Notes under the pieces: generated by a model
What the model was told of the DNA's origin: nothing
Database searches by the model: none
The model's input: only the letters and a program-made list of their open reading frames with translations
IMG/VR virus record: IMGVR_UViG_3300020202_000140
Location: 1-41,595 of that record
Length of the DNA: 41,595 nt
Source of the DNA: a virus
Strand: one strand, 5' to 3'
Translations under genes and position numbers: made by a program
Part shown: in pieces, positions 13,067-16,435 of the stretch
Layout of the letters: every line of letters begins with the position of its first letter
How positions within the stretch are numbered: the first letter of the stretch is position 1

Positions 13067-13261
13067 ATGCTAAGGGTGATCCAGGACGCCGTCTTCCTGG
13101 CGTCAGCGGCCGACTTAGTACTGGATAGCTTCGAAGCGGATGAAGTTCTTAGGCGAATAGAATCTGCGGGCATGCTTCCGCCGCCCTATTATCGTGGTGA
13201 ATCTGGAGACATATTTATTGACGGTGAGTTTCGTGCTGAATGGGAGCCCGAGAATGAGTAA
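13067..13261 (+). CDS. Small acidic hypothetical protein, 64 aa
   Basis: In-frame ATGs occur at 13037, 13052 and 13067. I prefer 13067 because it avoids overlap with the SLOG gene and has GAGGCGAAGTGA upstream. The protein is acidic and helical (VIQDAVFLASAADLVLDSFEADEVLRRIESAG), with an extended C-terminus (GDIFIDGEFRAEWEPE). It overlaps the polymerase start by eight bases. No family recognised; co-translation with PolB suggests a replication accessory. Confidence 0.5.
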   Translation: MLRVIQDAVFLASAADLVLDSFEADEVLRRIESAGMLPPPYYRGESGDIFIDGEFRAEWEPENE

Positions 13262-14798
13262 TGAGTTAATCTACGGGAAGAATCCCACCGAGCGTGTCGT
13301 CAGCATTGAACCCGGCTCCGGCAAGGCCGAGGTGTTTCGCGAGCTAGAGGACGGCAGCGTGGTTCGAGAAACTGTCCCCTGCTCGCACTACATCCTGTAT
13401 GCCGACGAAATGAGTCCGAAGTTCAAGCAACTCCGGGGTGACCAGTACTTCAAGTACATTATGGAGTACGACGATCTAGCCAAGTTTGAAGAAGTGCTGT
13501 CCGCCACGCGTGGGAAGCGCATCCCTCACCACGTTATTCGTGATCAGAAGGAAGCGCTCATGGTTAGGGAGGGATACACCTATTTCAAGAATATGAAGGT
13601 TGAGGACGTGTCAGTGCTCAGCTTCGACATTGAGACGACCGGCCTTACCCACGATAAGGATAGCAAGGTCCTGCTGATATCGAACACGTTCCGACGCAAG
13701 GGGAAGATTGAGCGCAAGCTGTTCGCTCTGGATGAGTACCCTAACTGTGGAATTATGATTCTGGAGTGGTGTAAATGGGTGGTGTTCAATGTGGACCCTT
13801 CCGTGATCGTGGGTCACAACTTGTATGGCTTTGACCTGCCCTATTTAGAGCATGTCCTAAAGCTTCACTCGGGTAACCGGTTGGCGTTAGGAAGGGACAG
13901 CTCGGCTCTGCGCTTCGCGAGATATCCTTCGCAGTTCCGTAAGGACGGTAGTCAGGCGTACGACTACACGAATGCGTACATCTACGGCCGGGAGATAGTG
14001 GATACCTTCTTCTTATCCATGAAGTACGACACAGCCGCCCGGCGTGAATACCCGTCATATGGACTGAAGGCCATTATCGAGCACGAGGGATTGGAGCGCA
14101 AAGGCCGGCAGCATTACGACGCAAGTAAGATCCGCGACCACTGGCACGATCCAGCTGAGCGCGCGAAGATCAAGGCGTACGCCATTGACGACGCAGACGA
14201 CGCGCTCAAGCTGTACGACTTGATGATACCGAGCCTGTTCTACTATACGCAGTCCATACCCCGAAGCTTCCAGTCGATTATCAACACGGCCACGGGTAGC
14301 CAGATCAATAGCCTCATGGTTCGGTCTTACCTACAGAACGGCCACAGTATCGCGGCGGCTTCCGAGAAGGAGGACTATGAGGGAGCCATCAGCTTCGGCG
14401 TGCCGGGCATCCATAAGAACGTGTTTAAGATCGACGTGGCCAGTCTGTACCCGAGTATCATCCTGTCGAAGAAGATCTACAACCGACAGAAGGACCCGCT
14501 CGGACTGTTCCTGCGGCTCGTGGAATACTTCACGGCTGAGCGTCTGAAGAATAAGCGGCTCGCAGAGGAGACAGGCGAGCGCTACTACAAGGACCTGAGC
14601 GACTCCCAGAAGATCGCTATCAACTCAATGTATGGCTTCCTGGGTACCGGCAAGCTGAATTACAACTCGCCCGCTGACGCGGCGAAGGTGACCGAGGTGG
14701 GCCGGGAGATTCTCAAGCAAGCAATTCTGTGGGCGTCCGGTAAGGAGTATGTACCGGCATTGGAAGGTGGAGACGATGAAGAAGACGACGCGGCTTAA
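13254..14798 (+). CDS. Family B DNA polymerase, N-terminal part (exonuclease, motifs A and B)
   Basis: The ATG at 13254 with GGGAG upstream starts a 514-residue protein. It has 3'-5' exonuclease motifs: Exo I SFDIETTG (Asp125, Glu127), Exo II VGHNLYGFDLPYL (Asn189, Asp194) and Exo III YAIDD (Tyr309, Asp313). Polymerase motif A DVASLYPSII (394-403) and motif B KIAINSMYGFLG (453-464) follow. It then stops after an acidic tail GGDDEEDDAA. The catalytic motif C (D-T-D) is absent and is in the gene at 14979. Alone it could degrade but not polymerise DNA; it must assemble with the C-terminal part. Confidence 0.92.
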   Translation: MSNELIYGKNPTERVVSIEPGSGKAEVFRELEDGSVVRETVPCSHYILYADEMSPKFKQLRGDQYFKYIMEYDDLAKFEEVLSATRGKRIPHHVIRDQKEALMVREGYTYFKNMKVEDVSVLSFDIETTGLTHDKDSKVLLISNTFRRKGKIERKLFALDEYPNCGIMILEWCKWVVFNVDPSVIVGHNLYGFDLPYLEHVLKLHSGNRLALGRDSSALRFARYPSQFRKDGSQAYDYTNAYIYGREIVDTFFLSMKYDTAARREYPSYGLKAIIEHEGLERKGRQHYDASKIRDHWHDPAERAKIKAYAIDDADDALKLYDLMIPSLFYYTQSIPRSFQSIINTATGSQINSLMVRSYLQNGHSIAAASEKEDYEGAISFGVPGIHKNVFKIDVASLYPSIILSKKIYNRQKDPLGLFLRLVEYFTAERLKNKRLAEETGERYYKDLSDSQKIAINSMYGFLGTGKLNYNSPADAAKVTEVGREILKQAILWASGKEYVPALEGGDDEEDDAA

Positions 14799-14982
14799 GG
14801 ATAACACGGTTTATATGTGCCGAGTGACTGGAGACTTGTGCGTCCTTCGAAGAACAGAAGGTACGTTTTACGGCCGCCCCGCGTGGACCCTCGATAAGTG
14901 GGCATGTACGATGCCGGAGGAGCTGAATCCTAGCTTCAAGGAAATTCTCGCCGAGGAATACATTTGTCTGGGTGACCTATGA
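14776..14982 (+). CDS. 68-aa protein encoded between the two polymerase halves
   Basis: The ATG at 14776 with GGTGGAG upstream lies in the last 23 bases of the PolB N-part; the stop overlaps the C-part start (ATGA). The alternative ATG at 14749 has no ribosome site. The protein begins KKTTRLKDNTVYMCRVTG and has a compact beta pattern (VYMCRV, LCVLRRTEGTFYG), then a charged helix (PSFKEILAEEYICLGDL). It is not an intein or homing endonuclease. Because all three genes are translationally coupled it may be a subunit that bridges the split polymerase; that is inference. Confidence 0.65.
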   Translation: MKKTTRLKDNTVYMCRVTGDLCVLRRTEGTFYGRPAWTLDKWACTMPEELNPSFKEILAEEYICLGDL

Positions 14983-15836
14983 AACACCACAACTTCATTA
15001 TCTGCAATGGTGACACGGATTCGATAGCATTCAAGAAGCCAGACGAGAAGCCTTTCACTCCCGAGGAACGGGCTGCCCTGCTGGCCGAGCTAAACGCGCT
15101 CATGCCTGAGAACATAGTGTGGGCCGACGACGACTTCTTCCGGCGCTTCATTGTCTGCGGTGCTAAGAACTACATCCTAGATAACGGCAAGAAGGTGAAG
15201 CTCAAAGGTAATTCGCTCAAGGCCACGAAGAAGGAGCCGGCTCTGCGCGAGTTCATCCGCGAAGTAGTCGACCTACTACTGAAGGATAAGAAGGAGCAGG
15301 TGATATTCGCTTACCTGCGCAAGGCCCAGGAGATAAGCCGGATCACCGATATCAGCCCGTGGTGTTTCAAGGCGACGGTAACCAAGAAGGTGCTGGAGCC
15401 GAGCACGGTGTTCAACCGGAAGATACGCGATGCTATCGGCGCCCGGCCTGTGGCCGAGGGCGACAAGGTCTACCTGTTCTATATGGAGGACGGGACGCTC
15501 TGCCTACGTGAGGACTTCAAGGGCGAGTTCGACCGCATGAAGCTACTGGGCAAACTACGGGACACTATTGAGACGTTTGGTAAGGTATTCGACGTAGAGC
15601 TATTCCCCGACCTGACTCTGTCCCGTAATAAGGAACTCCTGGCCGAACTGGGCTTATCCGCCAAGAATCCGCCAGTCGCAACCGTGGCGGTAAAGCCGCT
15701 GACTTCAGAAGAAAATATCGAAGCATGTGCGAAGGAAGTCACAACATGGCCCAAGTGGAAGGTCGAGGCCATCAAAGGCACCTTGTCTGAACCAACTATC
15801 AACCCGCCGACAGGCGTGAAACTCGTAAGGGTATAG
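14979..15836 (+). CDS. Family B DNA polymerase, C-terminal part (motif C and thumb)
   Basis: A 285-residue protein starting with ATGA overlap. HHNFIICNGDTDSIAFKK (residues 3-20) is the strand-turn-strand of polymerase motif C with catalytic Asp12 and Asp14 of DTD. KNYILDNGKKVKLKGNSLK corresponds to the KKRY/K-x-Y primer-binding motif, and the remaining helices form the thumb. Joined to the N-part, the order motif B then motif C leaves no obvious missing residues. The two proteins together make a complete exonuclease-polymerase of about 800 residues. No intein or intron motifs border the break. Confidence 0.9.
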   Translation: MKHHNFIICNGDTDSIAFKKPDEKPFTPEERAALLAELNALMPENIVWADDDFFRRFIVCGAKNYILDNGKKVKLKGNSLKATKKEPALREFIREVVDLLLKDKKEQVIFAYLRKAQEISRITDISPWCFKATVTKKVLEPSTVFNRKIRDAIGARPVAEGDKVYLFYMEDGTLCLREDFKGEFDRMKLLGKLRDTIETFGKVFDVELFPDLTLSRNKELLAELGLSAKNPPVATVAVKPLTSEENIEACAKEVTTWPKWKVEAIKGTLSEPTINPPTGVKLVRV

Positions 15837-15838
15837 CC

Positions 15839-16435
15839 ATGAAACACTTCATGCTCGATATCGAGACCATGGGTACAGACATGGAAGCGGACGATATTAT
15901 CCAGGTTGGTCTCCTGGAACTGACGCCCGGTCCGGATGGCTACAAGCCCGGCCGCTCCTACTCCAGAACTCTGTTCACGGCACAGAAGCCGAAGAACGAT
16001 TGGATCGCGAACACCCACCGCGACCTGCTGGAAGTATGTCGGCGTACCCCCATGGTTAGGGCGAACCAAGTGCGTAACGAGATACTAGAGTTCTTCGAGG
16101 ACTGCGGCGTCAATGAGCCAGCCATGCTGATGGGCCTGAACGCCACCACGTTCGATGTACCCTTCATGGTTCAGAAGGGGTTCCTCAAGCGGCCGTGGAA
16201 CGACGCGAATAATAAGCTTCAGGGCGACTACCACTATCGTATCTACGAGCTAAAGGGCGCGTTCAATCTGGCCCAGGACGTACTCGGGCTGGACAGCAAG
16301 GCGCTTTACAGCCGAGCCGAGGCACTGTGCCCTGAGGTGGAACTGCCTGAGGGGAAGAAGCACGAGGCGCTTTACGACTGCTATAGGCAGACGAAAGTGC
16401 TCAATGGAGTGATTCGTATGTTGAGGGGAGCCTAG
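15839..16435 (+). CDS. DEDDh 3'-5' exonuclease (Rv2179c-like)
   Basis: A 198-residue protein. MLDIETMG (Asp7, Glu9) is Exo I, MGLNATTFDVPFM is Exo II with the second Asp, and KKHEALYDCYRQ holds the Exo III His and Asp (H-x-x-x-x-D). The arrangement and DDIIQVGLLEL strand fit the Rv2179c-like/DUF5051 branch of the DnaQ fold found in phages. It lies two bases after the polymerase. Since the polymerase has its own proofreading domain, this enzyme may trim RNA or recombination ends instead. Confidence 0.83.
   Translation: MKHFMLDIETMGTDMEADDIIQVGLLELTPGPDGYKPGRSYSRTLFTAQKPKNDWIANTHRDLLEVCRRTPMVRANQVRNEILEFFEDCGVNEPAMLMGLNATTFDVPFMVQKGFLKRPWNDANNKLQGDYHYRIYELKGAFNLAQDVLGLDSKALYSRAEALCPEVELPEGKKHEALYDCYRQTKVLNGVIRMLRGA

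What the first reader, a model, noticed from the sequence alone, without database searches (positions are those of the whole stretch)
13254..15836. Family B DNA polymerase split between motif B and motif C, with a third gene between the halves
The N-part holds all exonuclease motifs and polymerase motifs A and B. The C-part starts ten residues before the catalytic DTD. The join loses no expected residues, and the three genes overlap by 23 and 4 bases. No intein, intron or homing endonuclease is at the break. Split PolB is known in some T4-like phages and in Methanothermobacter, but a translationally coupled 68-aa protein exactly in the gap suggests a fixed three-subunit polymerase rather than a fresh breakage.
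Basis: partly seen in the sequence, partly recalled or inferred. Interest (0 to 1): 0.85.

Follow-up and report, generated by a model that had tools for sequence, protein, structure and literature searches.

The report
Phage DNA polymerase, repeatedly split gene
The gene for this phage's DNA-copying enzyme really is broken in two in the middle of its active site, and a large uncultured phage family shows the same break at the same spot many times over, linked to selfish DNA-cutting genes; the small gene lying in the gap looks like a passenger, not a third enzyme part.

Summary
PolB is split into 514 aa (exonuclease, motifs A and B) and 285 aa (motif C), with a 68-aa ORF between, overlapping by 23 and 4 bases. 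N+C (799 aa) equals an intact relative (801 aa). The three-subunit reading fails: the 68-aa gene has no relative anywhere searched. Among 69 distinct relatives, 24 (window included) are split at the same point, 25 are intact, and 15 are intact with a 26-44-aa in-frame loop exactly there. The gaps hold nothing (10), homing endonucleases (8: four GIY-YIG, four HNH/NUMOD-like), unrelated small genes (5, window included) or a doubtful 46-aa ORF (1). Split and intact states have switched at least nine times on starred branches. The split follows the phylogeny of the active-site segment, not of the rest of the gene. Two pairs of close relatives show that segment replaced as a tract. Best explanation: a flexible loop before motif C is a recurrent fission and homing-endonuclease hotspot; the split, with flanking catalytic sequence, spreads by recombination; the halves reassemble; the 68-aa gene is later cargo. 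The known T4-like split (phage 44RR) lies elsewhere, between motifs A and B. Not 'fresh breakage', not a three-subunit enzyme.

The parts
13254..14798 (+). PolB N-part: 3'-5' exonuclease domain, polymerase motifs A and B; ends ILWASGKEYVPALEGGDDEEDDAA*
   Evidence: Pfam DNA_pol_B_exo1 and DNA_pol_B over cut-off
14730..14798 (+). N-part tail (WASGKEY + acidic stretch), first half of the junction loop; shared in kind with other split members (nearest: L064 WASSKDYVPSKSIETEDEEDA*)
14776..14982 (+). 68-aa orphan ORF in the gap, with a Shine-Dalgarno-like AGGTGGAG upstream; coding-like GC3; no homologue found; judged to be cargo
14979..15836 (+). PolB C-part: starts 11 residues before catalytic DTD (motif C), KNY motif, thumb; plus a C-terminal extension of about 55 aa not seen in the relatives aligned
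14979..15020 (+). C-part head MKHHNFIICNGDTD, second half of the junction loop (consensus M..[HY][DN]F.[IL].N.DTDS in split members)
15839..16435 (+). adjacent RNase T-like 3'-5' exonuclease gene (neighbour, not part of the split)

Best explanation
The window encodes a two-chain family B DNA polymerase. The break lies in a flexible surface loop between the helix after motif B and the strand that carries motif C, so the catalytic Asp of motif A and the Asp pair of motif C sit on different chains that must reassemble (inferred). In this uncultured phage family the loop is a recurrent fission site: it is absent, present in frame, or broken by a stop and an overlapping start. Homing endonucleases of at least three kinds (one GIY-YIG, two HNH-like) occupy the gap in some members. 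Recombination, most likely co-conversion during homing, carries the split with flanking active-site sequence into other polymerase genes, including previously intact ones. When the endonuclease is lost, the two genes remain overlapped, or other small genes settle in the gap. In the window that passenger is the 68-aa orphan, translated from its own start and coupled to the C-part by an ATGA overlap. Shown by sequence: the split, its recurrence, the loop, gap contents, segment-specific phylogeny, two replacement tracts. Inferred: homing as the driver, reassembly and activity, cargo status of the 68-aa gene.
For: (1) 24 splits at one point among 69 distinct loci, with recurrent N-tails (WA[TS]GK..., often acidic) and C-heads. 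(2) Split state needs 9 changes in the careful tree of 54 rows (5 forced by starred branches, no bootstrap tree with one origin) and 14 in the quick tree of 70 (9 forced); intact/split sister pairs L014/L038, L156/L170, L145/L153. (3) Three kinds of endonuclease, each found at this site in two or more distant polymerases and 33-47% identical within kind. (4) Trees by segment: split needs 17 changes on the distal N tree and 18 on the C-terminal tree (random about 20), 12 on the active-site segment tree (0 of 500 shuffles); sliding windows dip to 10-11 changes with 0 of 200 shuffles only across the junction. (5) Replacement tracts: L033 (GIY-YIG) and L046 (113-aa gene) are 93-97% identical in DNA over several kb, with aa identity 80-100% over most of the rest of PolB, but 20-60% around the gap; split L023 matches intact L034/L030 outside but is 40-56% inside, where the control pair L034/L039 is mostly 88-100% upstream of the junction. 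(6) AlphaFold2 of loop-bearing L168 (pLDDT 90) puts the loop as a low-confidence coil (494-519) between a helix and the motif C strand. (7) Motif C and KNY residues invariant in 13 split C-parts. (8) 43A+43B of Aeromonas phage 25 co-purify and are active (PMC2988022).
Against: Ten of 24 splits hold no gene, and the window shows no detectable endonuclease remnant, so homing as the cause of every split is not shown. L014/L038 differ by a small insertion without a replaced tract, so simple indel fission also happens. The local phylogenetic signal could in part be residues near the loop co-varying with it. All sequences are metagenomic; none of these polymerases has been assayed.
Confidence: 0.75

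Rival explanations
1. One ancient fission in the ancestor of the group, followed by repeated re-fusion. The in-frame loops of 26-44 aa would be scars of re-fused genes, and loop-less intact forms would come from recombination with intact relatives.
For: Loop-bearing intact genes resemble N-tail plus C-head joined (e.g. L047 WASGLNYNDW...EKEEDRV...YQHDFIIGPSDTDS), and deep ingroup branches are split or looped.
Against: The outgroups are intact and loop-less. Several loops are conserved in length across divergent members, as expected of a structural loop that came first. Loop-less intact L014 is sister to split L038 with no replaced tract.
Confidence: 0.2
2. Fixed three-subunit polymerase: the 68-aa protein is a translationally coupled subunit that bridges the two halves.
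For: Tight overlaps, own Shine-Dalgarno-like site and coding-like base composition.
Against: No homologue in any split relative; ten splits have no gene in the gap; gap genes elsewhere are endonucleases or unrelated to it. The coupled three-gene layout is also seen in L013 with a GIY-YIG endonuclease in the middle.
Confidence: 0.05
3. Trans-splicing: a split intein or a group I intron rejoins the halves.
For: Split inteins in split phage PolB genes are known (MIJ3, PMC6892783), and relative L189 has an intein elsewhere in its PolB.
Against: N-tail and C-head are only about 22 and 10 residues, with no intein blocks; Pfam finds no intein in the window proteins; Rfam finds no intron in the window or in 13 split loci.
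Confidence: 0.03
4. Decayed or artefactual locus (pseudogene, frameshift, chimera).
For: Single metagenomic contig.
Against: Long open frames with catalytic residues kept on both sides; the same break in 23 other distinct contigs; more silent than replacement change per site (pN/pS about 0.2-0.3) in L033/L046 outside the tract.
Confidence: 0.02

Closest known systems
Split gp43 of Aeromonas T4-like phages 25 and 44RR (43A/43B, with seg endonuclease or IC-UTS)
   Same: Phage PolB in two adjacent genes, endonuclease in the gap in one relative but not the other; halves of phage 25 co-purify and are active (PMC2988022)
   Different: Break is between motifs A and B in 44RR (43A ends in the fingers; 43B holds motifs B and C). 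Here it is between B and C, in a different PolB family, and recurs many times
Methanothermobacter split PolB (Kelman et al. 1999, listed as a reference in PMC3984812)
   Same: Naturally two-chain family B polymerase; from memory the small chain also carries motif C
   Different: Archaeal, and to my knowledge not linked to endonucleases; break position not checked here
Aeh1 nrdA split by mobE; other split phage genes
   Same: Free-standing homing endonuclease splits an essential enzyme whose parts reassemble (PMC2988022, PMC3653736)
   Different: Different enzyme; no reported repeated switching at one site with a travelling active-site tract in the papers read
MIJ3 split PolB with split intein and HNH endonuclease (PMC6892783)
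   Same: PolB in two genes with an endonuclease gene between
   Different: Joined by an intein; none here
Salinibacter phage M8CRM-1 PolB (nearest cultured relatives)
   Same: Homologous PolB, about 31% identity to the N-part
   Different: Intact, no loop, no middle gene

Membership tests
[quoted passage not shown]
   Motifs read in the sequence; Pfam for the N-part; alignment to intact relatives; family profile hits archaeal PolB structures at 1e-49 and Foldseek top hits are 9N/KOD/Pfu PolB
Split PolB of T4-like Aeromonas phages | Break between motifs A and B, in the fingers | tested here: not met
   44RR 43A/43B read directly; the window breaks between B and C
Gene split by a free-standing homing endonuclease (window itself) | Endonuclease gene in the gap | tested here: not met
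   The 68-aa ORF has no endonuclease similarity and no remnant was found
Gene split by a free-standing homing endonuclease (relatives) | Endonuclease gene in the same gap of homologous splits | tested here: met
   L013, L033, L065, L167 GIY-YIG over cut-off; L055 NUMOD over cut-off; L139, L057, L162 HNH/NUMOD-like below cut-off but related in pairs L055/L139 and L057/L162 at 41-47% identity
Gene split by a free-standing homing endonuclease (relatives) | Endonuclease cuts the intact allele and homes | not testable with these tools
   Needs a cleavage assay; only the tract signature is seen
Split intein PolB | Intein halves on the facing ends | tested here: not met
   Tails of about 22 and 10 residues; no Pfam intein hit in the window
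Group I intron-interrupted polymerase gene | Intron covariance match at the break | tested here: not met
Methanothermobacter-type split PolB | Break between motifs B and C | not tested
   Record not available here; recalled from memory only

The most novel reading that the evidence does not exclude
The split is itself mobile: a cassette of roughly 150 codons holding motif B, the broken loop, gap genes and motif C moves between phage polymerases by homing-type recombination, so that replicative polymerases are repeatedly turned from one-chain into two-chain enzymes, and perhaps back, while exchanging their active-site core.
Probability: 0.45. Interest if true: 0.78.

Novelty: new variant of a known kind. 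Interest (0 to 1): 0.64.

Why it matters
Natural fission of an essential polymerase inside its catalytic palm is rare in the literature I could read. Here one family offers some two dozen splits, loop-bearing intermediates, intact sister genes and differing gap contents, so the order of events in endonuclease-driven gene fission, and the fate of the halves, can be tested directly. It also suggests that the motif B to C core of a replicative polymerase can be exchanged as a tract between phages, and it gives natural split points for engineered two-chain polymerases.

Tried and rejected
Group I intron or other structured RNA at the break: none. Intein halves: none. GIY-YIG or HNH remnant in the window gap: none. 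Homologues of the 68-aa protein: none; AlphaFold2 on the single sequence is uninformative (pLDDT 51). Fixed three-subunit polymerase: rejected on gap contents. Two apparent splits (L141, L183) lie elsewhere and look like frameshifts; excluded. Single origin of the split by tree: not found in any of 200 bootstrap trees. A scan with the GIY-YIG alignment showed that this endonuclease kind is very widespread; of the 80 best loci only L189 lies in this PolB, and there at a second break point. Petrov 2010, Kelman 1999 and Dassa 2009 were not held, so they are cited only through other papers or from memory.

Full report
The window is a 41.6-kb virus record from IMG/VR of a siphovirus-like phage: large terminase, portal, head protein fused to protease, tape measure. 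The replication block 10.4-19.1 kb holds ERF, an AAA primase-helicase-like protein, the split PolB, an RNase T-like exonuclease and a tyrosine recombinase.

N-part 13254-14798, middle ORF 14776-14982 and C-part 14979-15836 overlap by 23 and 4 bases. N plus C equals in length the intact PolB of Salinibacter phage M8CRM-1 (799 against 801 aa) and aligns with it from end to end. The break falls after motif B and 11 residues before the catalytic DTD. The nearest cultured relatives are only about 31% identical and intact.

Relatives were gathered from IMG/VR with three successive alignments and from GTDB genomes. Of 69 distinct loci, 26 were flagged as split; two of these (L141, L183) are frameshifts elsewhere and were dropped. 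That leaves 24 splits at one point, 25 intact genes without insert, 15 intact genes with an in-frame insert of 26-44 aa at the same point, and three outgroups. In split genes the N-part usually ends I.WA[TS]GK... followed by a short, often acidic tail, and the C-part begins M..[HY][DN]F.[IL].N.DTDS. In most looped genes similar motifs flank the insert. AlphaFold2 of looped L168 (mean pLDDT 90) shows helix 464-486, a low-confidence coil 494-519, then the strand that leads into DTD 526-528; the fold matches archaeal PolB.

Gap contents: GIY-YIG endonucleases in L013, L033, L065 and L167; HNH/NUMOD-like proteins in L055, L139, L057 and L162, three of them below Pfam cut-offs but related in pairs; unrelated small genes in the window, L042, L046, L151 and L166; a doubtful 46-aa ORF in L043; nothing in L021, L023, L035, L038, L048, L054, L064, L153, L156 and L165, all but L035 with N and C overlapping by 4-14 bases. 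Each endonuclease kind occurs at this site in distant polymerases. The 68-aa protein resembles none of them, nor anything else searched. The junction of L064, in a Bacteroidia MAG, looks like that of the window without the middle gene (WASSKDYVP...DEEDA* / MHDF), which suggests a gene added to an existing split.

Phylogeny: the split state needs 9 changes on the careful tree of 54 rows and 14 on the quick tree of 70 rows, 9 of them forced by starred branches. Trees by segment show that the split follows the active-site segment (12 changes, 0 of 500 shuffles) and hardly at all the exonuclease part (17) or the thumb part (18; random about 20). A sliding-window test with the loop columns left out gives its minimum exactly across the junction.

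Direct tracts: L033 and L046 are 93-97% identical in DNA over several kb, but the gap and the coding sequence on both sides differ, with amino-acid identity 20-60% inside and 80-100% over most of the rest. One carries a GIY-YIG gene, the other an unrelated gene. L023 is split, yet outside the segment it is the sister of intact L034/L039/L030; inside, identity falls to 40-56%, where L034/L039 is mostly 88-100% upstream of the junction. So a split-bearing active-site segment was apparently brought into a lineage that is otherwise intact. L014/L038 shows no such tract, so small indels can also break or join the gene.

Interpretation: a flexible loop next to motif C is a recurrent point of gene fission and a homing-endonuclease hotspot in this family; split segments spread by recombination that looks like co-conversion; passengers may replace the endonuclease. 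Homing, reassembly of the halves and the cargo status of the 68-aa protein are inferences. Precedent for reassembly exists for the split gp43 of Aeromonas phage 25 (PMC2988022), but that type of split, read in 44RR, lies between motifs A and B. No paper found in ten searches describes the pattern seen here; subscription papers were not readable, so priority is not certain.

Limits: metagenomic contigs only; deep branches weakly resolved; most segment trees are quick trees; direction of change (fission or fusion) is open.

Noticed in passing
L189 2-4948 (IMGVR_UViG_3300019458_000004): PolB in three pieces with an intein: N-part with a LAGLIDADG intein in the exonuclease domain, the common junction with three cargo genes, a piece of about 100 aa with motif C, a GIY-YIG gene at a second break in the thumb region, and a last piece fused to DUF4326 and uracil-DNA glycosylase domains.
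   Followed up: partly
L042 6433-6669 and L189 1827-2066: Homologous zinc-finger-like small genes (about 42% identical, E 8e-12) sit in the same PolB gap of two phages, so cargo as well as endonucleases recur there.
   Followed up: no
window 15660-15836: The C-part carries a C-terminal extension of about 55 aa not seen in the aligned relatives, with VTTWPKWKVE; a 62-aa ORF in an otherwise unrelated contig (L006 7974-8162) has the same motif (42% identity). Function unknown; no match in phage records.
   Followed up: partly
window 15839-16435: A separate RNase T-like 3'-5' exonuclease gene directly follows a polymerase that has its own exonuclease domain.
   Followed up: no
Genome-contig loci L066-L135: Intact relatives of this PolB are found in many Armatimonadota, Chlorobiota and Ignavibacteriota genome contigs, some on contigs over 100 kb; prophage or cellular status not checked.
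   Followed up: no
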